Source: Treponema sp. (GTDB taxonomy: Bacteria; Spirochaetota; Spirochaetia; Treponematales; Breznakiellaceae). Taken from it: a DNA stretch of 44,508 nt. Location: NCBI GenBank assembly GCA_009778545.1, contig WRJO01000003.1, positions 1 through 44,508 of the forward strand. The letters are read 5' to 3'. Both the position numbers and the translations under genes were made by a program. The notes under the pieces were generated by a model that worked only from the letters and a program-made list of their open reading frames with translations, searched no databases and was not told the DNA's origin. This document shows, in pieces, positions 5,449-38,832 of the stretch; within the stretch, counting starts at the first letter, position 1, and every line of letters starts with the position of its first letter.

Positions 5449-5462
5449 AAAACAGAAGTTAG

Positions 5463-5491: not shown

Positions 5492-5497
5492 TTCTAC

Positions 5498-5731: not shown

Positions 5732-5747
5732 CGCCGTCTTTTCGGCG
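5732..5747. terminator. Short hairpin after the DUF3791 gene
   Basis: CGCCG (5732-5736) and CGGCG (5743-5747) flank TCTTTT directly after the stop codon. No T-run follows, so terminator function is weakly supported. Confidence 0.3.
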
Positions 5748-5858
5748 GCAGGCAAAACCGTTAGCGGTAATTATGGTCAGCCCGGCGGGCGGCCCCCATT
5801 TTTTGCAGGATAACATCGGTAAAGCGGTTAAAATAACTTCCCATGCTGTAAAGTATAG

Positions 5859-5948
5859 TATTTCAACCCGGAAAATGTAAGTGTTTTAACCGGAAAAATG
5901 TAAGCTTTCTAACCGGTAAAATATAACTAATTTAACCCGGAAAATGTG
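5859..5948. repeat. Four iteron-like repeats with CCGG cores, 22-24 bp period
   Basis: Four imperfect units share the form TTTAACCGGAAAATGTAAG. Their CCGG cores are at 5868, 5890, 5913 and 5937, spaced 22, 23 and 24 bp, about two helical turns. Such rows occur as transposase-binding sites in IS21-type and Tn7-type element ends and as replication iterons. No transposase or Rep gene is in the window, so this may be a solo end. Confidence 0.6.
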
Positions 5949-6042
5949 AATACCGTCTTCTTCTTCCCCCGCACTAATTCACTGAGAAGGGTACACACCC
6001 CGTCCGCTTCTGCTAAACTTGACCCACTGTTACCTGCGAATG

Positions 6043-16759: not shown

Positions 16760-16765
16760 CGGACA

Positions 16766-16771
16766 AGTATA
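16766..16771 (-). promoter_or_regulatory. -10 box 6 nt before the LRR lipoprotein ATG
   Basis: TATACT on the minus strand with a GC-rich, non-consensus -35 region. The spacing to the ATG would give a leaderless mRNA. Confidence 0.3.
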
Positions 16772-16882
16772 GCACACAAATCGGGGATTTCCCATCCGGA
16801 ATTTCTGGTTTTGGTGCCTGCCGCAGAATTCCTTGCAAAAATGCTCCGCGCAAAGGCGCTGGAAATATTATTCGAAAATACA

Positions 16883-23586: not shown

Positions 23587-23598
23587 GGTTGTATTTTC

Positions 23599-23627
23599 AT
23601 TATGGGGCAAGCGGACGGATATATCAA
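23599..23627 (-). promoter_or_regulatory. Promoter of the pyrophosphatase gene
   Basis: On the minus strand TTGATA (23627-23622), a 17-nt spacer and CATAAT (23604-23599). The leader would be only about 6 nt. Confidence 0.5.
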
Positions 23628-23656
23628 GACTCCCGCTTTTCTGCGATAATGCGCCC

Positions 23657-24238
23657 ATGTTTACATTCTGCCCCGCCTGCGCGTCAAAAGAGATCGTTTT
23701 TTCGGGCGGCAAATCGTTCCATTGCTCTGCCTGCGGTTTCGTGTACTACCACAACACCGCCGCCGCCACTGGCTGCATCATCAGCGTGCCGCCGGACGCA
23801 GACGCCCCCGCCGGCGGCGACGCTTGTGCCTGCCGCCTGTTGTTCCTCGTCCGGGGCAGGGAACCGGCAAAGGGCAAGCTCGACCTGCCCGGCGGCTTTG
23901 TCGATCCCGGCGAAGGCGCGCTTGAGGGCCTGCACCGCGAACTGCGCGAAGAGATCGGCTGGTCGCCGCCCGTTCCCCCCGGCGCGCCGCTTACCGGCAT
24001 ATACACATTGTTCGCATCGTTCCCCAACGTCTATCCGTACAAAGGCGTCGCCTACAACACCTGCGATCTATATTTCCGCTTACGCGCGCCGGGCCTGAGC
24101 GAGCGCAGCCTGCGGCTTGACTTTTCAGAAATCGCCGCCGTGCGCTTCCTGCTTCCCGATGAAATTAACTTTGACGAGATCGCATTTGATTCTACGCGCC
24201 GCGCGGTGAAGGAGTATCTGGCGTGGCACCTGTATTGA
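23657..24238 (+). CDS. Nudix hydrolase with N-terminal zinc ribbon
   Basis: This 193-residue protein begins MFTFCPACASKEIVF and has a second pair HCSACGF, a four-cysteine zinc ribbon as in NudC/NADH-pyrophosphatase-like Nudix proteins. The Nudix box GGFVDPGEGALEGLHRELREEIGW has all key positions (G-x5-E-x7-R-E-x-x-E-E-x-G). Substrate not determinable. The start at 23657 (not the upstream open frame) is set by the zinc ribbon and by GATAAT (23645-23650) 6 nt before it. Divergent from the pyrophosphatase gene. Confidence 0.85.
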   Translation: MFTFCPACASKEIVFSGGKSFHCSACGFVYYHNTAAATGCIISVPPDADAPAGGDACACRLLFLVRGREPAKGKLDLPGGFVDPGEGALEGLHRELREEIGWSPPVPPGAPLTGIYTLFASFPNVYPYKGVAYNTCDLYFRLRAPGLSERSLRLDFSEIAAVRFLLPDEINFDEIAFDSTRRAVKEYLAWHLY

Positions 24239-26718: not shown

Positions 26719-26734
26719 TGTGATATAAATCACA
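26719..26734. promoter_or_regulatory. CRP/FNR-family binding site before the nitrate-reductase operon
   Basis: TGTGA-TATAAA-TCACA, a perfect CRP-type dyad with an extra T before it (TTGTGA), as also described for HcpR-type regulators. Its centre is about 60 bp before the expected start (class I activator position). TATAAT follows at 26774-26779, while the -35 region is poor (AACGCT), as expected for an activator-dependent promoter. Confidence 0.75.
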
Positions 26735-26773
26735 TCTCAAACGAAGCAATAACGCTTACGATTAATATAATTT

Positions 26774-26779
26774 TATAAT
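26774..26779 (+). promoter_or_regulatory. -10 box of the nitrate-reductase operon
   Basis: A perfect TATAAT with no good -35, followed by GGAGG at 26804-26808 and the ATG at 26816. Confidence 0.55.
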
Positions 26780-26815
26780 GTTGTTAGCATAATTGTTGCA
26801 AAAGGAGGAATAGTT

Positions 26816-27796
26816 ATGGCACAAAAATCGTTGATACAAAAAGCTGCGGGGTTTCCGATACCGCTGCTTCCCACCCTGGTAGGCGCAGTGACGCTCTCGA
26901 ACGTGTATGCCGGTCAATTCCAGTTAACATGGATAAGGCATATCTCAACGGTTGCGTCAATGGTGGTCTGGCTGTTTGCGCTGATAAAAATAACGGTGCA
27001 TTTCAAGGTATTTAAAAACGAATATAAAAATACCGTTCCCGCCAGCCTTACCGCCGGTTTTACCATGCTAATGATGCTTTTCGGCGCTTATTTGCTCCCA
27101 TACAATGCAGCCGTCGGCAAAGCGATATGGTTTGCCGGGGTCGGTTTGCACGCCATTCATATTCTGATATTTACCTTTATGAACGTTCTGCGGGGGGTAA
27201 AGCTGGATACGTTTGTTCCGTCCTGGTTTGTCACCTATAACGGCTTTTTGGTATCGGCTGTTGTTGGCGTTCCCATGAAAGAGCCGTTCATACTGACCTG
27301 CATCGTATATTATGGTTTGGGCGTTTACGCTATTCTGGGCATCAGTATGCTTATCAGGGTTGCGTCAAAACCGATCAATCCGCCGCTCCTCCATACCAAG
27401 GCAATCTTCCTTGCCCCTGCGGCCCTCTGCCTTGTGGGCTACCTTAACATCATAAAATTCGACAACGTAACCGGAATACCGATCATTGTATACATATTGT
27501 ACGGCGCCGTATTTTTGTCGTTCCTGTATTTCCTTAAAAACCTGCCGGCCTTTTTCGCCGTTCCCTTTGCCCCAGGATTCGCGGGGATGACATTCCCTAA
27601 CGCGATAGGCATTGTAGCGTCTTACAATATGTCGGGATACCTGAAAGACGCGGGGTATGAACAACTGTCTTCGATTGTCAAGCAGATTGCCGGAATTCAG
27701 CTGTACATAACGACGGCTGTTATAGCGCTGGTGGTTTTCAACTTCATCAAGATGTTCAAGAAAAGCTATGAAAAGAAAGAGGAGGCTGCAAAGTGA
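26816..27796 (+). CDS. TDT/SLAC1-family anion channel or transporter
   Basis: This 326-residue protein has about ten hydrophobic segments in the arrangement of the TehA/SLAC1/TDT family: SLIQKAAGFPIPLLPTLVGAVTLSN at the start, ISTVASMVVWLFALIKI, GAYLLPYNAAVGKAIWFAGVGLHAIHI, VPSWFVTYNGFLVS, and INPPLLHTKAIFLAPAALCLVG. Family members conduct anions, including nitrate and chloride, or carry C4-dicarboxylates. As the first gene of a nitrate-reductase operon, coupled by GTGA to the reductase, nitrate or nitrite transport is the likely role (inference). Confidence 0.7.
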   Translation: MAQKSLIQKAAGFPIPLLPTLVGAVTLSNVYAGQFQLTWIRHISTVASMVVWLFALIKITVHFKVFKNEYKNTVPASLTAGFTMLMMLFGAYLLPYNAAVGKAIWFAGVGLHAIHILIFTFMNVLRGVKLDTFVPSWFVTYNGFLVSAVVGVPMKEPFILTCIVYYGLGVYAILGISMLIRVASKPINPPLLHTKAIFLAPAALCLVGYLNIIKFDNVTGIPIIVYILYGAVFLSFLYFLKNLPAFFAVPFAPGFAGMTFPNAIGIVASYNMSGYLKDAGYEQLSSIVKQIAGIQLYITTAVIALVVFNFIKMFKKSYEKKEEAAK

Positions 27797-29877
27797 AAAA
27801 GGTACAGACAACCTGCAATTATTGCTCGTTATCCTGTAATCTGGATTTCCATGTTGAAGGCAACGCCATACAAAAGGTAATGCCCACGCCGGACTATCCG
27901 GTAAACAGAAATTTTGCCTGTATTAAAGGTTTGTCCCTGGACAAGCCCGCCATCGTAAACCACACCAATCCGCTGCCGAGAATCAGGGATGAAAAGGGAA
28001 ATTATAAAAACGTTTCCTGGGACGAGGGTTTTAAGCATACGGCGGCAAAGATCAACGAGCTAATCAAAACCCACGGAAACGAGGCATTTGCCTCCATCAG
28101 CACGGGGCAGCTTACCCTGGAAGAAATGGCCCTGTTGGGGCACGTCGCCAGAAACTTTCTGCGGGCGGATGTAGACGGCAACACGCGGCTGTGCATGGCC
28201 ACTTCGGTCGTCGCCCACAAGCAGTGCCTTGGCTACGACGCGCCGCCGTATACCCTGAACGACTTTGAGCTTTCGGATACGATCATCCTTATCGGGGCGA
28301 ACCCGGTGGTGGCGCATCCCGTTGTTTGGGACAGGATCAATTCAAACAAAAACAAAAAACTGATCGTCCTCGACCCGCGCAAATCCGAGACTGCACAGCG
28401 GGCAGATTACTGGTACGGCCTCAAGCCCAAAAGCGACTTGACGCTGCTGTACACGCTGGCAAACCTCCTCATCGAAAAGGGCTGGGTAGACCAGAACTAC
28501 ATCGACAATTACACGGAGATGTTTGCGGAGTACAAGGCCCATGTGGCGGCGTTCAAAATGGATGCGGTCGAGAGCACAACCGGCATCAGCGCGGACAGGC
28601 TTTTGGAACTTGCTAAACTTATTCACGAAGGAAAGCGGGTCTCTCTGTGGTGGACGATGGGAATCAACCAGGGCTATGAAGGTGTCAGGACGGCGCAGGC
28701 GATTATGGCCATCGCCGTTATGACGGGCAACATCGGGCGCGAAGGCACCGGCGGCAACTCGCTGACCGGCCAGTGCAACGCGATGGGCTCGCGGGCGTTC
28801 AGCCACCAGGCGGGCCTGTACGGCGGCGGCGATTTCGACAATCCCAAACGCCGGGAAGCGGTGTGCGCCGCGCTGGGGATCACGGACGAGCAGCTCATCA
28901 ACAAGCCGACCGCTCCCTACAACGTTATTATCGAAAAAATACTTGCAGGAACCATTAAAGGCCTGTGGATACTTTGCACCAACCCGCGCCATTCCTGGGC
29001 GAACAACGAAACATTCCGCCAGGTTATGGAAAAGCTGGATCTGTTCATCGTTCAGGACATTTATGACGATACCGACAGTTCCGTGGACTGCGATATTTTC
29101 CTGCCGGTCGTTCCGGGGATCAAGAAAGAAGGGACGATCATCAATACGGAACGGAGGCTTTCGGCAATGCGCCCGGTTATCGACCGCGGGCCGGACGAAA
29201 AAACAGATTACCAGGTTCTGTTCGGCGTAGGAGAAGCACTGGGAATGGGGAGCCTTTTGGACAACTGGAAAACCCCCAAAGACGCTTTCGGCCTGATGAA
29301 AAAATGCTCAAAGGGTATGCCCTGCGAGATCACGGGCGTCGATTACGACGGCCTTGTCGACTCGAAAGGCATCCAGTGGCCGTTCAGGGAAGGCGAGACC
29401 CTTGCCTCCGACGAAAGGCGCCTGTTCGAGAACAACAAGTTCTACCATCCTTCGGGAAAATTCAAATTTATGTTTGAAGCGGTAAAGGAAAATCCACTGA
29501 AGAACTCGGCGGAATTCCCCTATACCCTGAACACGGGGAGGGGCACTATCGGCCAGTGGCATACCCAGACACGGACGCGGGAGGTTGCCTTTGTGCAGGA
29601 CGTAAGCGCGAAAGACGCTTATGTGCTGATCAATCCGGAACTTGCGGGAAAATACAGCCTTGCCGAAAACGACCTGCTGGAGATTAAGTCGATCAACGGG
29701 CAGAGCGCGGTATTCAAGGCAAGGATTACCCCTAACGTGCCGCCGGATCAGTTGTTCGCCCCAATCCACTACATTGAGACCAACAAACTGACCCCGTCGC
29801 TGTACGACTCCTATTCAAAGGAACCGTCGTACAAGACTACTCCCGTCAATATAAAGAAGGAGGGTGTGAAAGCATGA
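27793..29877 (+). CDS. Molybdopterin nitrate reductase (NasA/NarB type), catalytic subunit
   Basis: This 694-residue enzyme binds one [4Fe-4S] cluster (Cys8, 11, 15 and 43) and Mo-bis-MGD. The molybdenum-ligand region GNTRLCMATSVVAHK (Cys134) and LGYDAPP...DFELSD match assimilatory or clostridial nitrate reductases rather than formate dehydrogenase, which has Sec/Cys followed by His. GTGGNSLTGQCNAMGSR is typical of the Nas/Nap family. There is no Tat signal, so it is cytoplasmic and presumably reduces nitrate to nitrite with electrons from the two downstream proteins. GTG start in GTGA overlap with the transporter, with GGAGG before it. Assimilatory or dissimilatory use cannot be told. Confidence 0.82.
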   Translation: MKKVQTTCNYCSLSCNLDFHVEGNAIQKVMPTPDYPVNRNFACIKGLSLDKPAIVNHTNPLPRIRDEKGNYKNVSWDEGFKHTAAKINELIKTHGNEAFASISTGQLTLEEMALLGHVARNFLRADVDGNTRLCMATSVVAHKQCLGYDAPPYTLNDFELSDTIILIGANPVVAHPVVWDRINSNKNKKLIVLDPRKSETAQRADYWYGLKPKSDLTLLYTLANLLIEKGWVDQNYIDNYTEMFAEYKAHVAAFKMDAVESTTGISADRLLELAKLIHEGKRVSLWWTMGINQGYEGVRTAQAIMAIAVMTGNIGREGTGGNSLTGQCNAMGSRAFSHQAGLYGGGDFDNPKRREAVCAALGITDEQLINKPTAPYNVIIEKILAGTIKGLWILCTNPRHSWANNETFRQVMEKLDLFIVQDIYDDTDSSVDCDIFLPVVPGIKKEGTIINTERRLSAMRPVIDRGPDEKTDYQVLFGVGEALGMGSLLDNWKTPKDAFGLMKKCSKGMPCEITGVDYDGLVDSKGIQWPFREGETLASDERRLFENNKFYHPSGKFKFMFEAVKENPLKNSAEFPYTLNTGRGTIGQWHTQTRTREVAFVQDVSAKDAYVLINPELAGKYSLAENDLLEIKSINGQSAVFKARITPNVPPDQLFAPIHYIETNKLTPSLYDSYSKEPSYKTTPVNIKKEGVKA

Positions 29878-30284
29878 AAAAAATAGCAATCGACAGGGAT
29901 AAATGTATCGGCTGTTTAACGTGCGTATGCGCCTGCATGGTGGCCCATCAGGAACAGGACGCGAGGAACAGGGTAACGATAGACAGCAAGAACAAACCGG
30001 CGCCCATATTCTGCATGAATTGCGACAAGCCCGAATGTACCTATACCTGCATGACCGGCGCGATGAGCGTGAATGCCGAAAACGGCAGGGTAGCGTATGA
30101 CAAGGACCGCTGCGCGAACTGCTTTATGTGCATCATGGCGTGCCCCTACGGGGTTTTGAAGGCGGACAGCCTGCAGCACAAGGACATTATGAAATGCGAC
30201 CTGTGCGACGGCATAGGCGATTCGCAGCCGATGTGCGTGAAAAAGTGCCCGATGGAGGCGATTACTATGGAGGTGGCGGTATGA
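29874..30284 (+). CDS. Polyferredoxin electron-transfer subunit (4Fe-4S, CooF/HycB-like)
   Basis: This 136-residue protein has about four [4Fe-4S] sites: CIGCLTC.CAC near the N-terminus, CMNCDKPECTYTC, CANCFMCIMACPYG, and CDLC...CVKKCP near the end. The architecture is that of HycB/CooF/FdhB-type electron carriers. The ATGA overlaps on both sides show one coupled unit with the reductase and the flavoprotein, so it probably hands electrons from the flavoprotein to the molybdoenzyme. Confidence 0.85.
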   Translation: MKKIAIDRDKCIGCLTCVCACMVAHQEQDARNRVTIDSKNKPAPIFCMNCDKPECTYTCMTGAMSVNAENGRVAYDKDRCANCFMCIMACPYGVLKADSLQHKDIMKCDLCDGIGDSQPMCVKKCPMEAITMEVAV

Positions 30285-31489
30285 AATATGTGGTAATAGG
30301 CGCATCGGCTGCCGGCCTGAACGGCATTAAAACGTTGAGAAGCAACGACAAGAATGCCGAGATTGTACTGATTGCCCCGGATGCTCTGATTCATTCCCGG
30401 TGCATCCTGCACCGGTATATCGACGGCGAACGCGGCGAAAAAGACCTCGACTTTACCGAAGAAGGGTTCTTCGCGAAAAATAACGTTAAGCAGATCAAGC
30501 ACCGCGCCGCCGGCGTAGACCCGGCAAAAAAGGCAGTTTCGCTCGACAGCGGCGAGACGGTGAATTACGACAAGCTGCTGATCGCCGCCGGGTCGGTAAC
30601 GAACATGCCGCCGATCAAGAACCTCGGCGCGGCGAAGAATGTTTTTGGCTTGCACGATTTTGAAGATGCCGCCGCCATCAAGGAAAACGCGAAGAAGGCA
30701 AAGCACATCGGGGTCATCGGCTCGGGGCTGGTAGGCTGCGACGCGATTGTCGGCGTGCTAAACTCCGGCGCGAAAGTTTCGTGCTTTGAGGTTGCCGAAC
30801 ACCTGCTGCCCCTGAACCTGGACAAACACGCGGCGGAAACGTACCAAAAGGCGCTGACGGAAAAAGGCGTAGAGCAGCATTACAAGGCAACCGTAGCGGA
30901 GTTCCTGCTGGGAGGCGACAACAAAGTTACCGGGCTGAAACTTTCCGACGGAAAAACCTTTGACTGCGACATGATTATCATGGCGGCAGGTTTAAAATCC
31001 AACACGGAATTCCTGAAAAGCTCCGGCCTCAAAATCGACGACAAGGGCCTTGTCTACGACAAGCACGGTAAAACGTCCGACGATAATGTGTACGCCGCCG
31101 GCGATATTTCCGGCAGAACGCCGATATGGTCTGCCGCCGTAAAGGAAGGCATCATCGCGGCGAACAACATGAGCGGCGTTTCCAGCGAAATGACGGACTT
31201 CTTTGCCAGCAAGTCCACGATGAATTTCCTGGGCATCCCGACCATGTCCTTGGGGCTGGCCGTTAAGCCGGATGATTCGTTTGTCGAAGTTGTTTCCACC
31301 GACAAGAAGGGCAACTACAAGAAAATCATTCACAAAAACGGGGAAATCAAGGGGGCGATACTGCAGGGCGATTTATCCTATGCCGGTATTCTGACGCAGC
31401 TAATCAGGGAGAAAATAGATGTGTCAAGGGTAAAAAAGCCGCTGTTCAATATTGACTATTCCGATTTCTTCGGCGAATTTGAATTCTAG
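30281..31489 (+). CDS. NAD(P)H:ferredoxin-type FAD oxidoreductase of the nitrate-reductase unit
   Basis: This 402-residue pyridine-nucleotide disulfide-oxidoreductase fold protein has an FAD-binding VVIGASAAGLNG at the N-terminus, NAD(P)-binding GVIGSGLVGCD at about residues 145-155 and the second FAD motif VYAAGDISG. It resembles rubredoxin reductase and the N-terminal part of NirB. The upstream frame is open, but ATG 30281 gives the ATGA overlap and an intact N-terminal dinucleotide fold. Probable NAD(P)H oxidase feeding the polyferredoxin (inference from order). Confidence 0.82.
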   Translation: MKYVVIGASAAGLNGIKTLRSNDKNAEIVLIAPDALIHSRCILHRYIDGERGEKDLDFTEEGFFAKNNVKQIKHRAAGVDPAKKAVSLDSGETVNYDKLLIAAGSVTNMPPIKNLGAAKNVFGLHDFEDAAAIKENAKKAKHIGVIGSGLVGCDAIVGVLNSGAKVSCFEVAEHLLPLNLDKHAAETYQKALTEKGVEQHYKATVAEFLLGGDNKVTGLKLSDGKTFDCDMIIMAAGLKSNTEFLKSSGLKIDDKGLVYDKHGKTSDDNVYAAGDISGRTPIWSAAVKEGIIAANNMSGVSSEMTDFFASKSTMNFLGIPTMSLGLAVKPDDSFVEVVSTDKKGNYKKIIHKNGEIKGAILQGDLSYAGILTQLIREKIDVSRVKKPLFNIDYSDFFGEFEF

Positions 31490-31501
31490 GAGCGTGTAGC
31501 G

Positions 31502-32029
31502 ATGTTTACAACCGGCGAGACCGGCACGTCCGGTTCTGCCGGAAAAACGCCAATACTGTCTTTTGTGGGGAATTCCGGCTCGGGCAAAACCATGTACCTG
31601 GAAAGGCTGATACCGGAACTGAAATTGCGGGGCCTGCGCATCGGGATCGTTAAAAACGATGCGCACGGCTTTGATATTGATATTCCCGGCAAAGACAGTT
31701 GGCGATTAACCCGGGCCGGCGCGGACATTACCATGATTGCGTCGCCACAAAAGCTCGCCGTCGTTGAACAGTGGGATGCAAAAGAAAGCCTCGAGCAGAT
31801 AGCGAATCGGGTAAGCAACGTCGATTTGATTATTACCGAGGGGTTCAGGACGTCAAACGCGCCCAAAATCGAAGTACGCCGGACGGCATGCGGCCATGAA
31901 CCCATTTTTGGGCCGGAGCAGTTGATCGCCGTCGTCAGTGATGGCGCGCCTCCGGACGACTCCGTCCCCTGGTTCCCCCTTGACGACCCCGAACCCATGG
32001 CCGCGTTTATTATGGAATACATACGCTGA
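31502..32029 (+). CDS. mobB: Molybdopterin-guanine dinucleotide biosynthesis protein MobB
   Basis: This 175-residue P-loop GTPase has LSFVGNSGSGKTMYLERLI (Walker A at residues 23-30), IGIVKNDAHGFDIDIPGKDSWR, ADITMIAS and DLIITEGFRTS, all typical of MobB. It assists MobA in making the MGD form of the cofactor used by the reductase. The first 15 residues (TTGETGTSGSAGK) are an extra tail. It is 12 nt after the flavoprotein and 3 nt before the mobA-moeA gene. Confidence 0.9.
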   Translation: MFTTGETGTSGSAGKTPILSFVGNSGSGKTMYLERLIPELKLRGLRIGIVKNDAHGFDIDIPGKDSWRLTRAGADITMIASPQKLAVVEQWDAKESLEQIANRVSNVDLIITEGFRTSNAPKIEVRRTACGHEPIFGPEQLIAVVSDGAPPDDSVPWFPLDDPEPMAAFIMEYIR

Positions 32030-32032
32030 ACT

Positions 32033-33820
32033 ATGGATTATTCGGCGATTATTCTGACAGGGGGAAAAAGCACCAGATTTGGAAAAGACAAAACGCTGCT
32101 CAGGGTTAATGGCGAATTAATCGTTCAATCAATCATCAACAAGTGCAAGCCGCTGTTTTCCGAAATAATTCTGGTGAGCAACCACAGCAATAAATTCGGC
32201 ATAGAGGGCGTTACCGAAATATCCGACATTTTCGCCGGACAGGGCCCGCTGGGCGGGATACACGCAGGGCTGAAGGAAGCGAAAAACCCCGTTTGCTTTG
32301 TAACAGCCTGCGACATGCCGTATTTTTATCCGCCCCTTGTTTCGTACCTTCTGGAAGAATCGAAAGAGAGCGACGTTGTCGTCCCCAGAGAATCCAACGG
32401 CCACCTCCAGCCCCTGTTTGCCGTTTACAACAAGCGCGTCCAGCGTCAGGCGGAAGAGCTGCTGAAAGAAAACAGGTCTTCAATACTGTGCCTCTATGAC
32501 ATGGCGAATGTTAAGTACATTGAAGAGCAATGCTGGAAGGGAATAACCGGCGGCAAAGACGATGTTTTTTACAACATCAACTATGCCGAAGATTACGAGC
32601 GAATCCGCCAGATTCCCATTGAACTGGAATCGGCGGTCGACCTGCTGGTAAAGAATGTCAGCGCCATCACGGAAACGGTAAAGGCCCCCATATTGCAGGC
32701 CTGCGGGAACGTAGCGGCGGAAGACATTGTTGCATCCATGAATAATCCGCCGTTTCACCGTTCCCCCCTTGACGGCTATGCCCTCCGCCACCAGGACAGC
32801 AAGGGCGCAAGCAGGGAACATCCGGTGCGGCTAACCGTTTCCCGCGAGGTTTTTGCCGGAAGCCGCCCCGAAAGCGGAGCAGAACTGCCCGCCGGACACG
32901 CCGCAAGGATTATGACCGGAGGCGTTATTCCGGACGGATGCGACTGCGTTATCCGCCAGGAAGACACCGACGAAGGCGCCAAGGCCGTTCAGATTTATTC
33001 GGAATTGCGGGAACACCAGAATTTTTGCTTCTGCGGCGAGGACATTCGCGAGGGGCAGAAGCTGTTAAGGCGCGGCGATACGCTTCAATATGTGCACCTT
33101 GGCGTGCTGTCCAGCGTGGGGGTTTCGCAGATCGAAATCATACGTCCGGCAAAAGCCGCCGTTATGTGCACCGGGGACGAATTGGTATCGAGCGGCACTG
33201 CACTTGCGCCGGGAAAAATCTACGACAGCAACCTGTACATGCTGGCCGGCCGTCTTACCGAGCTGGGCATTGAAACAATCTGCTATCCCCCCGCTACCGA
33301 TGATGTTTCCTCCATTGCCGCCAGAATTGAAAAAATGGCAGAAGAAGCGGACGTCGTTATAACCACCGGCGGCGTCAGCGTGGGCAAAAAAGATTTTCTG
33401 CACGAGGTGTTTACCCTGCTGAATGTCGATAAATTATTCTGGCGCGTGGGCCTAAAGCCGGGAACTCCGGTGCTATGCGGCATGTACCGGAACAAGCCGC
33501 TTGTCTGCCTTTCGGGCAACCCCTTTGCCGCGACGACTACTTTTGAGCTATTGGTGCGTCCGGTTCTGGCGAAGCTTACCGGCAGGGATTCCCTTATGTA
33601 CAGCTGCCAAAAGGCCCGGCTCGTCGGCGATTTTAACAAGACCAGCGATACAAGGCGGTTTATCCGGGCGCGGCTTGTGGGCGGCGAGGTGTTTTTAAAC
33701 CCGGGAAGCCATTCTTCCGGCGTGCTGTTTTCCATGCTGAGCTGCAACGCGCTTATCGATATTCCGGCAGGTTCCCCGCCTCTAAAGAGCGGAATGACCG
33801 TTGATGTGGTTTCGCTCTGA
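32033..33820 (+). CDS. mobA/moeA: MobA-MoeA fusion protein
   Basis: This 595-residue protein joins two enzymes. Residues 1 to about 195 are MobA: IILTGGKSTRFGKDKTLL, GPLGGIHAGL, FVTACDMPY, HLQPLFAVY; it transfers GMP from GTP to molybdopterin. From about 197 on is MoeA: ACGNVAAEDI, FHRSPLDGYALRH, RIMTGGVIPDGCDCVIRQEDT, MCTGDEL, TTGGVSVGKKDF, LSGNPFAA; it inserts molybdate into the cofactor. Separately encoded in many bacteria, here they form one chain, which puts the last two cofactor steps together. moaABCDE is not in this window. Confidence 0.9.
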   Translation: MDYSAIILTGGKSTRFGKDKTLLRVNGELIVQSIINKCKPLFSEIILVSNHSNKFGIEGVTEISDIFAGQGPLGGIHAGLKEAKNPVCFVTACDMPYFYPPLVSYLLEESKESDVVVPRESNGHLQPLFAVYNKRVQRQAEELLKENRSSILCLYDMANVKYIEEQCWKGITGGKDDVFYNINYAEDYERIRQIPIELESAVDLLVKNVSAITETVKAPILQACGNVAAEDIVASMNNPPFHRSPLDGYALRHQDSKGASREHPVRLTVSREVFAGSRPESGAELPAGHAARIMTGGVIPDGCDCVIRQEDTDEGAKAVQIYSELREHQNFCFCGEDIREGQKLLRRGDTLQYVHLGVLSSVGVSQIEIIRPAKAAVMCTGDELVSSGTALAPGKIYDSNLYMLAGRLTELGIETICYPPATDDVSSIAARIEKMAEEADVVITTGGVSVGKKDFLHEVFTLLNVDKLFWRVGLKPGTPVLCGMYRNKPLVCLSGNPFAATTTFELLVRPVLAKLTGRDSLMYSCQKARLVGDFNKTSDTRRFIRARLVGGEVFLNPGSHSSGVLFSMLSCNALIDIPAGSPPLKSGMTVDVVSL

Positions 33821-33829
33821 TACTATACT
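33801..33829 (+). promoter_or_regulatory. Internal promoter for the siroheme genes
   Basis: TTGATG (33801-33806), a 17-nt spacer, TATACT (33824-33829), then 5 nt to the ATG at 33835. The -35 lies within the end of moeA. It would give a leaderless sirC mRNA and let the siroheme genes run independently of the nitrate promoter. Confidence 0.5.
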
Positions 33830-33834
33830 GACGC

Positions 33835-34335
33835 ATGATAATCAGTGACAGAAAATCGGAAAAAACCCCGGCTGCGGCGGGAACATTTTTTCCGCTTTTT
33901 ATCGATATGGGCGGCAGGAAGGTGCTGGTAATCGGCGGCGGAAAAGTGGCAGGGCGGCGGATAAAGGGCCTTGTCGGCTTTGGCGCGGAAATCACCGTAA
34001 TAACGCCGGAAGCCGCCGGGTACATTGAAAATGCTGCTGCTTCGAAAGCGATACGGCTAATCAGGCGAAAATACAAAAAGGGCGACGTGGCGGCGCTGAT
34101 GCCGTTTTTTGTTATCGCGGCAACAGGCAGCCGGCAGGTAAACCATGCCGTGATGGCGGAAGCCAAAAGCCTGGACACCCCGGTGTCGGTCGCGGACTGC
34201 CGGGAGGAATGTACCTGCTTTTTTCCGGCGATTGCGGAAAGCGGGGACTATATCGCGGGGCTTGTATCGAAAAACGGCAGCCACCGGGGCGCCGCGCAGA
34301 CGGCGAAGAAAATACGGGAGTTCTTTGCTTCATGA
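33835..34335 (+). CDS. sirC: Precorrin-2 dehydrogenase (SirC/Met8/CysG N-terminal type)
   Basis: This 166-residue NAD-dependent enzyme has FIDMGGRKVLVIGGGKVAGRR (Rossmann loop), ITVITPEA, PFFVIAATGSRQVNHAV, and the C-terminal VADCREECTCFFPAI. It oxidises precorrin-2 to sirohydrochlorin. The short form lacks the extra domains of CysG, and the methyltransferase part is supplied by the CobA-HemD protein two genes on. ATGA overlap with hemC. Confidence 0.88.
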   Translation: MIISDRKSEKTPAAAGTFFPLFIDMGGRKVLVIGGGKVAGRRIKGLVGFGAEITVITPEAAGYIENAAASKAIRLIRRKYKKGDVAALMPFFVIAATGSRQVNHAVMAEAKSLDTPVSVADCREECTCFFPAIAESGDYIAGLVSKNGSHRGAAQTAKKIREFFAS

Positions 34336-35219
34336 AAAGAACCATACGGGTCGGAAGCCGCGACTCTGTTTTGTCGGTTATACAGGCGCAGATTGTTATG
34401 GATGCCGTTAAAGCGGCAAATCCGGCTGTTGAGTTTGAGCTTGTTGCCATCAAAACGTCGGGGGATAAAAATACCAGTGCCGCACTGGATTCGGCGGCCG
34501 GAAAGGATTTGTTTACCAGGGAACTGGAACAAGCCCTTGCGGACGGCAGCATTGACATAGCCGTTCACAGCTATAAGGACATGCCCTATGAAGCGTCGGA
34601 AGATTTGCCCGTAGTGGCGCTGTCCGAAAGGGAATCGCCCTTTGACGTGCTGGTGCTGCCCAGGGGCGCCGCAGCTTTGGACAGTTCAAAACCGGCGGGG
34701 TCTTCCAGCCTGCGAAGGACGATCCAGTTTGCGAAATTGTACGCGGGGGTTGCCACGAGGCCGGTGCGGGGCAACGTGCCCACCCGCCTTGCGAAACTGG
34801 ATGGCGGCGAATATTCCGCGCTGATACTGGCCCATGCCGGGCTGATCAGGCTGTCGTTGCAGGACAGGGTTTCCCGCGTCTTCACGCTCGACGAAATGAT
34901 TCCGGCGGCTTCCCAGGGAATCCTCGCCGTGCAAGGCAGGCAGGGCGAAGATTATTCGTACCTTGGCGGCTTCCACAGCCGGGAATCGGAAATTGTTTCC
35001 AGGGCGGAACGGCGATTCCTTAAAACCCTGGGCGGCGGCTGTTCGTCTCCTGCCGCCGTATTCGGTCAGCTGCATAACGGCGAGCTGCTCCTTGCCGGGA
35101 TGTACGCCGGCCCCTGCGGCTGCATGGAAACCGGAAGGATAAACGGCGGTGCGGATGAGGCAGAGCAGTTGGGCGAAACGCTCGCCATGCGGCTGAAAAT
35201 GAAATGGGAGGGAAAATGA
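34332..35219 (+). CDS. hemC: Hydroxymethylbilane synthase (porphobilinogen deaminase)
   Basis: This 295-residue protein has IRVGSRDSVLSVIQAQIV, VAIKTSGDK, HSYKDMPYE and FLKTLGGGCSSP, where Cys237 holds the dipyrromethane cofactor. It joins four porphobilinogens into hydroxymethylbilane. The frame is open upstream, but ATG 34332 gives the ATGA overlap and the correct N-terminus. Confidence 0.95.
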   Translation: MKRTIRVGSRDSVLSVIQAQIVMDAVKAANPAVEFELVAIKTSGDKNTSAALDSAAGKDLFTRELEQALADGSIDIAVHSYKDMPYEASEDLPVVALSERESPFDVLVLPRGAAALDSSKPAGSSSLRRTIQFAKLYAGVATRPVRGNVPTRLAKLDGGEYSALILAHAGLIRLSLQDRVSRVFTLDEMIPAASQGILAVQGRQGEDYSYLGGFHSRESEIVSRAERRFLKTLGGGCSSPAAVFGQLHNGELLLAGMYAGPCGCMETGRINGGADEAEQLGETLAMRLKMKWEGK

Positions 35220-36730
35220 TCGTTACCCTGGTCGGGGCGGGCCCCGGCGACAGCGGGCTATTAACCCTCAAGGGCTTACAGCGGCTGCAGAATGCCGACG
35301 TAGTGCTGTACGACCGCTATATCGGCGAAGAGATTCTTTCGATGATACCCGCCGCCGCCGAAAAGATAGACGTTGGAAAAAAAGCGGGCCGCCACCCCGT
35401 GCCGCAGGAGGAGATCAATTCCCTGCTGCTGGAAAAGGCCCGGCAGGGGCTTAGGGTGGTCAGGCTCAAAGGCGGCGACCCGTTCGTATTCGGGCGCGGC
35501 GGCGAGGAACTGGATTTTCTCGCCGATAACGGCATTCCCTTTGAAGTGGTGCCGGGGGTTACCTCCGCCATAGCGGGCCCTGCATACGCCGGCATACCCG
35601 TTACCCACCGGAAACACGCATCTTCGCTGCATATAATTTCCGGGCATCCCCGGAAAGATGCCATTCCGGCAGCGAACTACGACGCCCTGGTCCGCGCGGG
35701 GGGCACGCTTGTTTTTTTGATGGGTGTTGCTGCAGTCGGCGACATTTGCCGGGGCTGCGTTGACGCCGGCATGGACGTAAACATGCCCGCCGCCATCATC
35801 GAAAATGCCACCGTTGGTTCCCAGCGCGTATTTTCGGGCACGGTGCAAACCCTGCCCGCCATAGCCCGCGAAAACAACGTTAATTCGCCTTCCGTTATCG
35901 TCATTGGGAACGTATGCCGGCTTTCCGGCCGCTTCGGCTGGTTCAAGCCGGAGGTTCGGCGCGTCCCCGGCAGGCGGGTCATCGTCGTGCGGGGCAGGCC
36001 GGGGTCGTCCGACCTGTCGGACATGCTCAGGGAACTGGGCTTTCAGGCGGTGGACATGCAGTGCTTTGCCATCGTTCCGCTTACCGGCCCCGGCTGCGAA
36101 TTGGAAAAAGCCATCGGGAAAATAAATGGCTACGCTTGGCTTTTGTTCACCAGCAGCATTGGCGTAAATGTGTTTTTCGATTACTTTATTGCAAACGGAT
36201 TTGACATAAGGACGCTTGCCAATCTGAAGGTCGGCTGTGTCGGAAGCGAAACCGGAAAGGAACTTGCCAGGCGCGGTATTGCGGCAGATTACCGCCCGCC
36301 CGAATACAACGGGGCGGCGCTGGCCCGAGGCCTTGTTCCGCTTGTCAAAAATGGGGAGAAGCTGCTCATCCTCAGGGCCAAAAACGGCGCGGAAGGCGTT
36401 ACGCGCATACTGGCGGACGCAGGGATTGCCTTTGACGACGTGCCGCTATACGAAAAGGTCCAAGATTCGGCGAAAACCGGCGCGGCTGCCAGGATAATCG
36501 CCGAAAACAGGGCGGACTTTGCCGCGTTTACCAGCTCGTCCGCCGTGGAGAGCTTTGCCGCAGCGGCCGAAGCGGCCGCAGCGGCCGCAGGCACGGACAT
36601 AAGCGCAATAAAGGCGGTGTGCATCGGGGAGAGGACGGCGGCTGCGGCAAAATCATACGGCATGGAAGTGCATGTTTCGGCGGAGGCCACCATCAAGAGC
36701 ATGGTTGAAAAAATAAAGGAGCTTGCGTAA
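35216..36730 (+). CDS. cobA/hemD: CobA-HemD fusion: uroporphyrinogen-III methyltransferase and synthase
   Basis: The protein has 504 residues. Residues 1 to about 245 are SUMT/CobA: VTLVGAGPGDSGLLTLKGL, VVLYDRY, VVRLKGGDPFVFGRGGEE, VPGVTSAIAGPAYAGIPVTHR; it adds two methyl groups to uroporphyrinogen III. Residues about 255-504 are HemD: VIVVRGRPGSSDLSDMLRELG, WLLFTSSIGVNVFFDYF, LRAKNGAEGVTRILADAGIAF, AFTSSSAVESF; it cyclises hydroxymethylbilane. An alanine-rich stretch (AAAAEAAAAAAGTD) is coded by repeats of GCGGCC near 36560. GGGAGGG sits before ATG 35216, so the upstream in-frame ATG at 35204 is rejected. The stop shares one base with hemB. Confidence 0.93.
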   Translation: MIVTLVGAGPGDSGLLTLKGLQRLQNADVVLYDRYIGEEILSMIPAAAEKIDVGKKAGRHPVPQEEINSLLLEKARQGLRVVRLKGGDPFVFGRGGEELDFLADNGIPFEVVPGVTSAIAGPAYAGIPVTHRKHASSLHIISGHPRKDAIPAANYDALVRAGGTLVFLMGVAAVGDICRGCVDAGMDVNMPAAIIENATVGSQRVFSGTVQTLPAIARENNVNSPSVIVIGNVCRLSGRFGWFKPEVRRVPGRRVIVVRGRPGSSDLSDMLRELGFQAVDMQCFAIVPLTGPGCELEKAIGKINGYAWLLFTSSIGVNVFFDYFIANGFDIRTLANLKVGCVGSETGKELARRGIAADYRPPEYNGAALARGLVPLVKNGEKLLILRAKNGAEGVTRILADAGIAFDDVPLYEKVQDSAKTGAAARIIAENRADFAAFTSSSAVESFAAAAEAAAAAAGTDISAIKAVCIGERTAAAAKSYGMEVHVSAEATIKSMVEKIKELA

Positions 36731-37710
36731 TGGACAAAAGGACAAGGAGGCTGCGGGGCAGCGAGCAACTGCGCCTCATGACGCGGGAAACACGGCTCTC
36801 TGCCAACAGCCTTATCTATCCCCTCTTTGTCAGAGAGGGCAAGGGCATTGCGGAAGCCCTGCCTTCGCTTCCCGGGCAGATACGCTACAGCCCGGACACC
36901 CTGGCAAAGGGCATGGAAACGGCGATAAACGCGGGGGTTCGCTCATTCCTCCTCTTTGGCATACCCGCCGCCAAAGACGAAAGGGGCTCGGGCGCATATG
37001 ACGAAAAGGGGGTGATTCAGCAGGCGCTGAGAAACCTTAAACTGGCCTATGGAAAGGACGTGTGCCTCATCGCCGACGTCTGCCTGTGCGAATATACGTC
37101 CCACGGCCATTGCGGCCTGGTCGAGAACGACAGGATCGATAACGACTCCACGCTGCCCCTGCTCGCGCAGATCGCGCTTTCATATGTAAGCTCGGGCAGC
37201 GATGTGGTCGCCCCTTCGGGCATGATGGACGGTACAGTTAGTTGCGTACGAAAGGCTTTGGATGCGAACGGCTTTACGGATGTTCCCATAATGAGCTATG
37301 CCGCCAAATATGCCTCCGCTTTGTACGGCCCGTTCCGCGAAGCGGCCAGTTCAGTGCCCCGGTTTGGAGACAGAAAGACCTATCAAATGGATTGGCACAA
37401 CAGCAGGGAAGCGCTGAAACGGATTCAGATTGACATTGACGAAGGCGCGGACATCATTATTGTAAAACCAGCCCTTGCGTACCTGGACATTGTATCCAGG
37501 GTTTCGCGCCGCGTGAACGAACCGGTCGCCGCTTACAGCGTCAGCGGCGAATATGCTATGATAAAGGCCGCCGCCGCTTCGGCGTTCATTGACGAATATC
37601 GTATAATGTGCGAAAGTGCAGTTTCGGTATTCCGCGCCGGTGCGGATATCCTGATTACCTATTTCGCCAAGGAACTGGCTGCGGCGATAAAAAAGGGGGA
37701 TATTGGATGA
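36730..37710 (+). CDS. hemB: Porphobilinogen synthase (5-aminolevulinate dehydratase)
   Basis: This 326-residue enzyme has LIYPLFVREGKG at the N-terminus, DVCLCEYTSHGHCG, the cysteine-rich zinc site, MSYAAKYASALYGPFREA with a catalytic lysine, and IIIVKPALAYLDIV with the Schiff-base lysine. It condenses two 5-aminolevulinates into porphobilinogen. Its TGA stop overlaps the ATG of a 15-codon ORF that ends by ATGA at the next gene. Confidence 0.95.
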   Translation: MDKRTRRLRGSEQLRLMTRETRLSANSLIYPLFVREGKGIAEALPSLPGQIRYSPDTLAKGMETAINAGVRSFLLFGIPAAKDERGSGAYDEKGVIQQALRNLKLAYGKDVCLIADVCLCEYTSHGHCGLVENDRIDNDSTLPLLAQIALSYVSSGSDVVAPSGMMDGTVSCVRKALDANGFTDVPIMSYAAKYASALYGPFREAASSVPRFGDRKTYQMDWHNSREALKRIQIDIDEGADIIIVKPALAYLDIVSRVSRRVNEPVAAYSVSGEYAMIKAAAASAFIDEYRIMCESAVSVFRAGADILITYFAKELAAAIKKGDIG

Positions 37711-37754
37711 CAATGATCTTTTCAAAAAATCCCGTCGCCGAGGGTGGCGCATGA
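37707..37754 (+). CDS. 15-codon minigene bridging hemB and cbiX
   Basis: ATG 37707 overlaps the hemB stop (ATGA), encodes MTMIFSKNPVAEGGA, and its TGA overlaps the cbiX ATG (ATGA). GGGGG lies 7 nt before. Both junctions use the same overlap seen between most genes of this operon. It could carry ribosomes across the 40-nt gap so that cbiX is translated by reinitiation. No peptide function can be inferred; chance is possible. Confidence 0.35.
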   Translation: MTMIFSKNPVAEGGA

Positions 37755-38113
37755 AAGGCATTCTGGTAGTTGCCCACGGCAACAGGGAAAAAGAAACAGG
37801 GGCGATTTTCGATACCATTCTGTCAATGGTAAAGGTTCAGCTTCCTGAAACAACTATCGAATACGCCTGCCTGAAGTACTCCGATCGGACAATTGAAAAG
37901 GGCATTGAAGCTTTGGCAGCCAGGGGAATTACGGAGATAACAATCGTGCCGTATTTTCTGTTCGTGGGAAAACACCTGAAAGTGGACCTGCCCTATATGG
38001 TTGCCCAATGCGCTCCAAAATTTCCTGAAATACAGATCACTATTGGAGAGGTACTTGGTATTGACCAGCGGCTTGCCGATATTTTGGTTGACAGAATCAA
38101 CAACTCCGGTTAA
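37751..38113 (+). CDS. cbiX: Sirohydrochlorin chelatase CbiX/SirB, short form
   Basis: This 120-residue protein is the short CbiX type: KGILVVAHGNREKET with His9 and FLFVGKHLKVDLP with His75, the two metal-ligand histidines, and ALAARGITEITIVPY. It inserts Fe(II) (or Co(II)) into sirohydrochlorin; with the four neighbouring enzymes the product would be siroheme. The frame extends to a TTG at 37703, but ATG 37751 after GAGGGTGG gives the expected N-terminus. Confidence 0.88.
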   Translation: MKGILVVAHGNREKETGAIFDTILSMVKVQLPETTIEYACLKYSDRTIEKGIEALAARGITEITIVPYFLFVGKHLKVDLPYMVAQCAPKFPEIQITIGEVLGIDQRLADILVDRINNSG

Positions 38114-38139
38114 CGGACAGTGTGTTTTGGAGAGGCGCG

Positions 38140-38832
38140 ATGCTGACATTGTCTGTTGAAAAACTGAGAAAAATGGATTTGTTTAAGGATGCTTCGGAAG
38201 CAGCCTTAACGGAGATTTGCAGGCTGGCGAGGGTAAAGCAATATCCCAAGGGCAGCTATCTTTTCATGGACAAACAGCCCCTGGATTCGGTCTTTATTGT
38301 ATTCTCCGGAAAATTCATTCTGTACAAGATCAGCGCCGCAGGCTATAAGCGGGTAATTTTCATGCTTGGAGAAGGCCATATCCTCAACGATCATCTGACA
38401 AAAGACCTGCCGAGCGTTATTAACTGCGAAAGTTTTGAGGATTCATACGCCCTCGTTATCGGCAAGGGGGCTTTTTTGACGGTTCTGAGCATGGATTTTT
38501 CGATAATGCAGGCCGTCCTGAACCAATACACGTCAAAGCTGCGGCGGACTTTCCGCCAGCTTAAAAACGCCTCGACAAGCGTGGGGATGGAAAAAAGAAT
38601 TGCGGCGAAAATATATGCCTTAAGCCGCCAGTACGGAGTAAAATCGGCCAAAGGGGTCGTCATCAACGTGCCGCTAACCGTTACCTATCTTTCGGAAATG
38701 CTGGGGGCCCAGCGGGAAACCGTCTCGCGGACCATGAAGAAACTCGTAAAAGACGGGCTGATAACATATGAGCAGCGGAAAATCGCCATACCTAATCTGG
38801 AAGTATTGGCGGATTTCTACAGAAAGGAATAA
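38140..38832 (+). CDS. CRP/FNR-family transcriptional regulator
   Basis: This 230-residue protein has an N-terminal cyclic-nucleotide-binding-like domain (FKDASEAALTEICRLARVKQYPKGSYLF, DSVFIVFSGKFILYK, FMLGEGHIL), a long dimer helix and a winged HTH with LTVTYLSEMLGAQRETVSRTMKKL. The recognition helix R192-E193-T194-V195-S196-R197 is the CRP-type signature for TGTGA half-sites, which are found before the transporter gene. Only two cysteines, so no FNR-type [4Fe-4S] sensor; an HcpR- or DNR-like heme/NO or nitrite sensor is possible but not shown. GGAGAGG before ATG 38140 sets the start (not 38122). It closes the operon. Confidence 0.87.
   Translation: MLTLSVEKLRKMDLFKDASEAALTEICRLARVKQYPKGSYLFMDKQPLDSVFIVFSGKFILYKISAAGYKRVIFMLGEGHILNDHLTKDLPSVINCESFEDSYALVIGKGAFLTVLSMDFSIMQAVLNQYTSKLRRTFRQLKNASTSVGMEKRIAAKIYALSRQYGVKSAKGVVINVPLTVTYLSEMLGAQRETVSRTMKKLVKDGLITYEQRKIAIPNLEVLADFYRKE

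What the first reader, a model, noticed from the sequence alone, without database searches (positions are those of the whole stretch)
26719..38832. Nitrate reductase, molybdenum-cofactor and siroheme genes form one 12-kb unit in a spirochaete-like genome
From the transporter to the CRP regulator all genes point the same way and most overlap by ATGA/GTGA. They cover nitrate reduction (reductase, polyferredoxin, flavoprotein), the final Mo-cofactor steps (MobB, MobA-MoeA) and 5-aminolevulinate to siroheme (HemB, HemC, CobA-HemD, SirC, CbiX). Siroheme is the cofactor of ferredoxin/NADH nitrite and sulfite reductases, so the unit looks built for nitrate to ammonia, yet the nitrite reductase is absent here. 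hemA and hemL are also absent. The electron-transfer trio resembles the clostridial nitrate-reductase layout, so horizontal transfer is a possibility. Nitrate use is not a usual trait of Treponema-type spirochaetes.
Basis: partly seen in the sequence, partly recalled or inferred. Interest (0 to 1): 0.75.

Follow-up and report, generated by a model that had tools for sequence, protein, structure and literature searches.

The report
Clostridial-type nitrate reductase operon in treponeme
A spirochaete carries a nitrate-reduction gene set of a kind best known from clostridia, fused in one gene row to its own genes for the siroheme cofactor, but this row lacks both the usual partner enzyme for nitrite and the genes that start the cofactor pathway.

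Summary
The 12-gene same-strand unit (26816-38832) is real. Its catalytic subunit has the nitrate-reductase Cys-Met motif and is about 57-66% identical to clostridial homologues, including the Clostridium ljungdahlii cluster whose deletion abolishes nitrate reduction (PMC9124969). Seven treponeme NarB, this one included, form one clade inside a clostridial radiation, supporting horizontal acquisition; 7 of 195 family genomes have the gene.

The missing nitrite reductase has a candidate already proposed in print for other bacteria, AsrABC ('anaerobic sulfite reductase'). AsrC lies within 6 kb of NarB in 46 of 82 homologous loci, and in part of them shares the operator TGTGA-N6-TCACA with narB or the channel gene. 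The closest relative (NarB 88%) carries hemA-sirC-hemC-cobA/hemD-hemB-hemL-cbiX-crp-asrABC facing its nar operon. In the window the sirC-crp block lies in tandem behind nar, without hemA, hemL and asrABC. The bin is only 68% complete, so asrABC may lie elsewhere. Missing hemA and hemL fit dependence on imported 5-aminolevulinate, supported for Treponema primitia cobamides (PMC6461909), predicted here for siroheme; two 99%-complete Brachyspira nar genomes show the same gap.

Verdict: a known kind of system in an unusual host, with an unusual cofactor supply.

The parts
26719..26734 (.). CRP-type operator TGTGATATAAATCACA, the only one in the window with at most one mismatch, 97 bp upstream of the first gene
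26816..27796 (+). SLAC1/TDT-family anion channel, predicted nitrate/nitrite transporter
   Evidence: PF03595; TDT within 6 kb of NarB in 61 of 82 loci, an MFS NarK-like transporter in 3, both in 0
27793..29877 (+). NarB, Mo-bis-MGD nitrate reductase catalytic subunit with an N-terminal [4Fe-4S] domain
   Evidence: Pfam; motif NTRLCM; tree
29874..30284 (+). Ferredoxin-like electron-transfer subunit, 17 Cys (four 4Fe-4S clusters predicted)
30281..31489 (+). FAD/NAD(P)H oxidoreductase subunit (NirB N-terminal/PadH-like)
   Evidence: NCBIfam matches below cut-offs
31502..32029 (+). MobB
   Evidence: TIGR00176 over cut-off
32033..33820 (+). MobA-MoeA fusion
   Evidence: Pfam domains over cut-offs
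33835..34335 (+). SirC-type precorrin-2 dehydrogenase
   Evidence: TIGR01470 over cut-off
34332..35219 (+). HemC
   Evidence: TIGR00212 over cut-off
35216..36730 (+). CobA-HemD fusion (uroporphyrinogen-III methyltransferase and synthase)
   Evidence: TIGR01469 over cut-off and PF02602; start chosen
36730..37710 (+). HemB (porphobilinogen synthase)
   Evidence: NF006762 over cut-off
37751..38113 (+). CbiX-type small sirohydrochlorin chelatase
   Evidence: NF033198 63.5 bits, below its cut-off of 120; 60% identical to the gene in the same relative place in L138
38140..38832 (+). CRP/FNR-like regulator with recognition helix RETVSR; 2 Cys, so no FNR-type cysteine cluster
   Evidence: (all matches below cut-offs)

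Best explanation
The unit is one operon, started at a CRP-type operator, that makes a soluble NAD(P)H/ferredoxin-linked nitrate reductase of the clostridial type. The channel brings nitrate in (and may let nitrite out). The flavoprotein and the ferredoxin subunit carry electrons to NarB, which reduces nitrate to nitrite. MobB and MobA-MoeA finish its Mo cofactor. The second half makes siroheme from 5-aminolevulinate for an AsrABC-type siroheme reductase that turns nitrite into ammonium. The nar half came horizontally from the clostridial/fusobacterial pool; the siroheme half is the family's own operon, placed in tandem behind it. asrABC, often in or near such loci, is not in this one and most likely lies in the unassembled third of the genome. 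hemA and hemL are missing from the operon, so 5-aminolevulinate is probably taken up. The CRP-like regulator encoded last probably activates its own operon. Shown: gene content, motif, synteny, trees, operator position. Inferred: transcription as one unit, transport role, electron path, AsrABC acting on nitrite and being present in this organism, 5-aminolevulinate uptake.
For: Domains. Active-site Cys-Met as in E. coli NapA, against Cys/Sec-His in nine FDH-like rows and E. coli FdhF; the tree sets the FDH-like rows apart at 100. The C. ljungdahlii locus L096 reads CRP-AsrABC-MFS-NarB-Fdx-Flav; deletion of the nar trio of that species abolished nitrate reduction (PMC9124969), and its asr genes rise strongly with nitrate and were proposed as nitrite reductase (PMC5640608; PMC4222884). 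In Acididesulfobacillus acetoxydans AsrABC protein rises 195-fold during nitrate reduction (PMC10949509). AsrC within 6 kb of NarB in 46 of 82 loci. Operators: 30 of 34 perfect sites in 1.48 Mb lie within 300 bp upstream of narB, TDT or asrA. Closest relative with the full hem-asr operon. Seven treponeme NarB rows form one clade at SH-aLRT 99 inside clostridial and fusobacterial rows. HemB groups with the family's own. Intact siroheme ORFs with dN/dS estimates 0.08-0.23.
Against: NCBIfam ranks formate dehydrogenase alpha first for NarB (438 bits, cut-off 666), ahead of NasC (366, cut-off 1100); no cut-off is reached. No siroheme reductase was found in the bin. AsrABC of the closest relative does not group with AsrABC of the five other treponeme genomes, so nar and asr do not share one history. 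Salmonella asrABC deletion mutants still reduce nitrite and lose sulfite reduction, and AsrABC has never been assayed pure (as told in PMC10949509). The operator is absent, even with one mismatch, in five other treponeme nar/asr stretches (L049, L052, L229, L226, L227), and perfect sites are in a minority of starts (NarB 7 of 82, TDT 6 of 65, AsrA 17 of 50). The control starts (FdxC, FlavR, AsrC: 0 of 179) lie mostly inside coding sequence, so they are a weak control. The congener G539 has a 269-bit match to the ALA-synthase model (cut-off 339) that was not identified further. Nothing was measured.
Confidence: 0.75

Rival explanations
1. The catalytic subunit is another molybdoenzyme, such as a formate dehydrogenase, and the resemblance to nitrate reductase is only of the superfamily.
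For: Highest NCBIfam score is Fdh-alpha; the ten best PDB sequence matches are formate dehydrogenases and the YjgC oxidoreductase, NapA comes after them.
Against: Cys-Met at the Mo ligand, as in NapA; FDH-like rows form a separate clade; linked TDT, Mob and Asr genes; genetic proof for the C. ljungdahlii cluster (PMC9124969).
Confidence: 0.05
2. The lineage reduces nitrate only to nitrite (electron sink, nitrite released through the channel); asrABC is truly absent and the siroheme genes are kept for another use or are decaying.
For: No PF01077 in the bin; hemA, hemL and asrABC are all missing at the places where the closest relative has them.
Against: The bin is 67.8% complete and also lacks moaA, which all six other nar carriers of the family have (in two Brachyspira nar genomes MoaA matches stay below the cut-off, so moaA is not a perfect yardstick). 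In the congener G539, asrABC sits with CRP and TDT genes on a contig other than the siroheme contig. Siroheme ORFs are intact. No CbiC, so no sign of cobamide use.
Confidence: 0.2
3. hemA and hemL simply lie in another part of the genome that was not assembled, so 5-aminolevulinate is made normally.
For: 32% of the genome is missing; some relatives have hemA on a different contig from hemB (G442); 8 of 25 family genomes with HemA have no HemB found, which shows how often bins miss such genes.
Against: The congener G539 (92% complete) and Brachyspira G132 and G113 (99%) also lack hemA, hemL over its cut-off and ALA synthase over its cut-off. hemA and hemL are both present or both absent in each of the 12 genomes tested.
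Confidence: 0.3
4. The tandem arrangement is a mis-assembly, and the real order is as in the closest relative.
For: Metagenome-type bin of 135 contigs; the block is inverted relative to the relative.
Against: The junction MoeA-SirC is a 14-base gap between intact genes, and three separate gene absences, one inside the block, would all have to be errors.
Confidence: 0.07

Closest known systems
nar gene cluster of Clostridium ljungdahlii (CLJU_c23710-30) with neighbouring asr genes
   Same: NarB, ferredoxin subunit and NADH-oxidase-like flavoprotein in the same order; a CRP-like gene nearby; shown by deletion to be the nitrate reductase (PMC9124969)
   Different: C. ljungdahlii has an MFS transporter and asrABC upstream; the window has a SLAC1/TDT channel, Mob genes and siroheme genes, and no asrABC. 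NarB 57% identical
Brachyspira nar-siroheme-CRP-asr locus (L031-L034, L037)
   Same: Counterparts of all the window's genes except CbiX (no match to the query) lie in one locus; hemA and hemL not found in the two genomes tested, both 99% complete
   Different: asrABC present next to crp; gene order differs; NarB, AsrABC and HemB fall in other clades
Treponema Nt197P3bin20 contig WRIB01000055.1 (L038/L138)
   Same: Same genes, NarB 88%; a one-mismatch version of the operator upstream of the channel gene
   Different: Siroheme operon is convergent, starts with hemA, contains hemL and ends with asrABC, with a perfect operator before asrA
5-aminolevulinate salvagers of PMC6461909, including Treponema primitia ZAS-2
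   Same: Tetrapyrrole pathway from HemB on without the genes that make 5-aminolevulinate, in a termite-gut treponeme
   Different: There the product is cobamides; here CbiC was not found and siroheme is the predicted product
AsrABC proposed as nitrite reductase in Acididesulfobacillus acetoxydans (PMC10949509), and Fsr in the methanogen nitrate operon (PMC13381448)
   Same: A siroheme sulfite reductase thought (Asr) or shown in vitro (Fsr) to act on nitrite made by a nitrate reductase
   Different: The nitrate reductase there is NarGHI, or a methanogen operon with a transporter; neither paper was compared with the window by sequence

Membership tests
Clostridial NAD(P)H/ferredoxin-linked nitrate reductase (Nar trio) | Catalytic subunit of the nitrate-reductase clade with Cys-Met at the Mo ligand | tested here: met
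Clostridial NAD(P)H/ferredoxin-linked nitrate reductase (Nar trio) | Adjacent 4x4Fe-4S ferredoxin subunit and FAD/NADH-oxidase-like subunit | tested here: met
Clostridial NAD(P)H/ferredoxin-linked nitrate reductase (Nar trio) | Nitrate reductase activity | not testable with these tools
   Known for the C. ljungdahlii cluster (PMC9124969)
Nar-Asr nitrate-to-ammonium module | asrABC in the locus or genome | tested here: inconclusive
   Not in the locus, not in the 67.8% complete bin; present in the closest relative and in a nar-carrying congener
Siroheme biosynthesis from 5-aminolevulinate | HemB, HemC, HemD, CobA, SirC and a chelatase, all intact | tested here: met
   the chelatase model is below its cut-off
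De novo C5 pathway to 5-aminolevulinate | hemA and hemL | tested here: not met
   Absent from the locus and not found in the bin, subject to 68% completeness
5-aminolevulinate salvager | hemB present; hemA, hemL and ALA synthase absent in a complete genome | tested here: inconclusive
   Met in two Brachyspira at 99% completeness; G539 at 92% lacks hemA and hemL but has an unidentified sub-cut-off match to ALA synthase; the own bin is too incomplete
CRP-type regulator with TGTGA-N6-TCACA operator (as Desulfovibrio HcpR) | R-E-x-x-x-R recognition helix and matching operator upstream of target genes | tested here: met
   RETVSR; operator at 26719; consensus and R180/E181 rule read as passages of PMC1274295
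CRP-type regulator with TGTGA-N6-TCACA operator (as Desulfovibrio HcpR) | Place in the HcpR branch of the CRP/FNR tree; hcp as target; effector | not tested
   No tree of regulators built, hcp not searched

The most novel reading that the evidence does not exclude
Gut spirochaetes (this treponeme lineage and, independently, Brachyspira) run nitrate ammonification whose nitrite step depends on community-supplied 5-aminolevulinate: the siroheme operon has lost its own precursor genes, so nitrate-to-ammonium flow is switched by cross-feeding of a tetrapyrrole precursor.
Probability: 0.4. Interest if true: 0.65.

Novelty: new variant of a known kind. Interest (0 to 1): 0.45.

Why it matters
In a large survey of termite-gut MAGs (PMC9137090, passages read), 15 MAGs had complete dissimilatory nitrate reduction, and all of these and the urease MAGs were Proteobacteria or Campylobacterota except one Bacillus; the genes named in the passages are narGHI, napAB, nrfAB and nirBD. 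The route seen here (NarB in seven treponeme genomes, AsrABC in six of them) would escape such searches, so nitrate use by spirochaetes of this family may be underestimated. The linkage and the shared operator add support for reading asrABC genes beside NarB as nitrite reductases, an idea in print since 2013-2024 but never assayed with pure enzyme. The missing hemA and hemL point to a testable exchange of 5-aminolevulinate between microbes.

Tried and rejected
A hemL remnant in the 40-base gap between hemB and cbiX looked plausible by eye (frame DNDLFKKSRR), but a shuffle test gave 1160 of 2000 shuffles at or above the observed score, so it is dropped. The HemL match at window 37608 came from 33 extra upstream codons in my HemL query, which overlap hemB in another frame; with the trimmed query the window has no HemL match.

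A simple story of nar and asr travelling together into treponemes is not supported: L138 AsrABC falls apart from the five other treponeme AsrABC (starred branches force 2 changes). So I cannot say whether the window lost asrABC or the relative gained it.

ALA synthase as the precursor source: 0 of 12 genomes pass the TIGR01821 cut-off of 338.6; scores of 243 and 269 bits in G351 and G397 (= G539) were not followed. Cobamide synthesis as the use of the tetrapyrrole genes: CbiC was found in 4 of 14 genomes, not in G000, G539 (= G397) or the two Brachyspira.

Transfer of the locus between G000 and G576: GlnRS is 78% identical against NarB 88%, but locus genes range from 60 to 90% with near-saturated silent sites, so recent exchange is not shown.

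Paper searches listed no paper that, from titles and abstract openings, describes this arrangement or the SLAC1/TDT channel as the nitrate transporter of nar operons; most listed papers were not opened.
Full report
What is there. Twelve intact genes lie on the + strand from 26816 to 38832. In order: a SLAC1/TDT channel, NarB, a ferredoxin subunit with 17 cysteines, an FAD/NAD(P)H oxidoreductase, MobB, MobA-MoeA, SirC, HemC, CobA-HemD, HemB, CbiX and a CRP-like regulator. Of the 11 junctions, 5 overlap by four bases, 1 by one base, and 5 have gaps of 3 to 40 bases. One CRP-type operator in the window lies at 26719-26734, 97 bp upstream of the first gene. The next gene downstream is on the other strand, a queuosine precursor transporter.

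Nitrate reductase or formate dehydrogenase. NCBIfam alone does not settle it: Fdh-alpha scores highest and every model is below its cut-off. I therefore aligned 112 rows, E. coli NapA and FdhF among them. The window reads NTRLCM; NapA reads NARHCM; FdhF and nine other FDH-like rows read Cys or Sec followed by His. One truncated row (L026) has no motif. In the tree of 108 rows (L026 and three duplicate Brachyspira rows dropped) the FDH-like rows separate at 100. The nearest genetically tested relative is the C. ljungdahlii nar cluster; its deletion strain lost nitrate reduction and complementation restored nitrate use (PMC9124969, passages). That locus L096 is this cluster rests on species and gene order. 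The window NarB is 57% identical to the L096 NarB.

Relatives and neighbourhood. A scan of one genome per species kept the best 80 loci (more existed): mostly Clostridia, plus Fusobacteria, Brachyspira, one bin labelled Chloroflexi and six spirochaete bins (that these six come from termite or cockroach guts is recalled from their isolate names, not shown by a call). In 82 loci (L044-L046 dropped as duplicates, five Brachyspira stretches added, the window not included; some genomes give two loci), TDT lies within 6 kb of NarB in 61, an MFS transporter like that of C. ljungdahlii in 3, both in 0, neither in 18; AsrC lies within 6 kb in 46. Of the 82, 33 have short flanks, and Brachyspira AsrC lies further than 6 kb off, so the Asr count is a minimum. 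The mutual exclusion of TDT and MFS suggests that the channel does the nitrate transport; the MFS number is small.

The missing nitrite reductase. The closest relative (NarB 88%) has asrC, asrB and asrA passing the NCBIfam cut-offs. PF01077 was found in 17 of 20 genomes checked, the three without being the window's bin and two congeners that also lack NarB. In C. ljungdahlii the same three genes are strongly induced by nitrate and were proposed as nitrite reductase (PMC5640608, passages); nitrate was consumed with stoichiometric ammonium there (PMC4222884, passages). In A. acetoxydans AsrABC is proposed as nitrite reductase from transcript and protein levels, but the same paper notes that Salmonella asrABC mutants still reduce nitrite (that species also has NrfA) and that AsrABC has not been purified (PMC10949509, passages). 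A related case is the methanogen Fsr, which takes nitrite and sulfite (PMC13381448, passages). The idea is thus not new. Added here are the linkage across phyla and a shared operator. In 83 stretches (1.48 Mb) there are 34 perfect TGTGA-N6-TCACA sites; 30 are within 300 bp upstream of narB (7 of 82 starts), TDT (6 of 65) or asrA (17 of 50), while 0 of 179 starts of FdxC (81), FlavR (81) and AsrC (17) have one. These control starts mostly have coding sequence before them, so the control is weak, and counts include near-copies. Of the other four sites, three precede the MoeA-like match of Brachyspira loci and one lies between a CRP gene and NarB (positions compared). Several treponeme stretches have no site even with one mismatch (L049, L052, L229, L226, L227). 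The window regulator has the recognition helix RETVSR, which fits the published R180/E181 rule for this operator in Desulfovibrio HcpR and E. coli CRP (PMC1274295, passages).

What differs in this genome. On the relative's contig (L138) the nar operon faces a second operon, hemA-sirC-hemC-cobA/hemD-hemB-hemL-cbiX-crp-asrABC (HemA 195.8 bits, slightly under its cut-off of 209.6). In the window the block from sirC to crp is turned round, placed directly behind moeA, and lacks hemA at its head, hemL in its middle and asrABC at its tail. The remaining genes are intact and conserved (silent sites are close to saturation, so the ratios are rough and cannot date the event). Among the 24 family genomes with HemB, hemL directly follows hemB in 14 (G576 and 13 others), does not in 8 with room to see it (G000, G539, G212, G518, G458, G454, G530, G455), and cannot be seen in 2. 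So hemL after hemB is probably, not certainly, ancestral. Direction for asrABC is open, since the relative's AsrABC is not of the clade of the five other treponeme genomes.

Completeness limits and what goes round them. The bin is 67.8% complete. It lacks moaA, which six of six other nar carriers of the family have, so absence alone proves little; in the two Brachyspira genomes MoaA matches stay below the cut-off, so moaA is not a perfect yardstick. Three results go round this. First, the congener G539 (92% complete, also nar-positive) has sirC-hemC-cobA/hemD-hemB without hemL next to it and without hemA or hemL over cut-off in the genome, and has a CRP-TDT-AsrABC cluster on a contig of its own, apart from the siroheme contig. 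That contig might adjoin the nar contig, whose FlavR lies 150 bases from the contig end, so I do not claim that asr and nar are apart there. Second, Brachyspira G132 and G113 (99%) have nar, siroheme and asr genes and lack hemA, hemL over its cut-off and ALA synthase over its cut-off. Third, hemA and hemL are both present or both absent in each of the 12 genomes tested: both in G392, G393, G394 and G401, neither in 8, of which G177, G351 and G396 (= G515) have no HemB either. Weaker matches to the hemL model (129-140 bits in the eight, against a cut-off of 527) are presumably other aminotransferases and were not identified. Across the family HemB is in 24 of 195 genomes and 7 of these lack HemA: G000, G539, G430, G431, G455, G518, G212; conversely 8 of 25 genomes with HemA lack HemB, which shows the effect of incomplete bins. 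G430 and G431 do have hemL after hemB, so they are not clean cases. G212 is a 4.1-Mb single-contig genome that fits T. primitia (recalled size), and T. primitia ZAS-2 made more corrinoid and grew better with added 5-aminolevulinate (PMC6461909, passages).

Origin. The seven treponeme NarB rows are one clade (SH-aLRT 99) inside clostridial and fusobacterial rows, apart from Brachyspira (quick tree without mixture model; the tool warns of long branches, L084 among them). NarB at E below 1e-150 occurs in 7 of 195 family genomes in 6 of 56 genera, and in 2 of at least 22 genomes of the window's genus. HemB of the window, L138 and G539 is one clade (100/99), next to G212 within the family's HemB, while Brachyspira HemB goes with the fusobacterial one (midpoint root; 26 rows). 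So an acquired nar operon was probably joined to a resident siroheme operon.

Verdict. As an enzyme system it is known. Its host, the fused operon and the missing precursor genes make it a new variant worth testing.

Noticed in passing
L094 and L039 (Clostridium paraputrificum), L086 and L055 (Clostridium CL-2), L088 and L074 (Clostridium K13), L093 and L064 (C. cuniculi), L083 and L090 (C. thermobutyricum): Five clostridial genomes gave two NarB clusters each; L094, L086, L088 and L093 branch deepest in the NarB group and have no TDT channel nearby.
   Followed up: partly
L053, L079: Epulopiscium-type bins carry the nar trio with TDT, and their NarB groups with Niameybacter next to Brachyspira (support 89).
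   Followed up: no
window 1-6000: G+C is about 0.40 against 0.47-0.60 in the rest; BspA-type leucine-rich repeat proteins at 1665-3587 and 14984-16795. Possibly a mobile or recently acquired stretch.
   Followed up: no
window 8459-13051: A 1530-aa hybrid histidine kinase with PAS, GAF, HisKA, ATPase and receiver domains.
   Followed up: no
window 21928-23712: DHH/DHHA2 protein with CBS and DRTGG domains, a regulated inorganic pyrophosphatase type (enzyme name recalled).
   Followed up: no
window 37703-38113: A longer CbiX frame starting at TTG runs in frame from the end of hemB; resemblance of its first residues to HemL is no better than chance.
   Followed up: yes
L096 8637-9929: MFS transporter between AsrC and NarB in C. 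ljungdahlii; loci with it have no TDT channel nearby and the reverse, suggesting exchange of one transporter type for the other.
   Followed up: partly
termite treponeme cooS loci (PMC3082573): Published: clade-C CO dehydrogenase genes of termite treponemes sit beside homologues of the same ferredoxin and flavoprotein subunits, so this electron-transfer pair may serve more than one catalytic subunit (passages).
   Followed up: no
G132 and G113 (Brachyspira): MoaA matches of only 31-33 bits, below the cut-off of 37.4, in 99% complete genomes that carry the nar locus: a divergent MoaA or a gap in Mo-cofactor synthesis.
   Followed up: no
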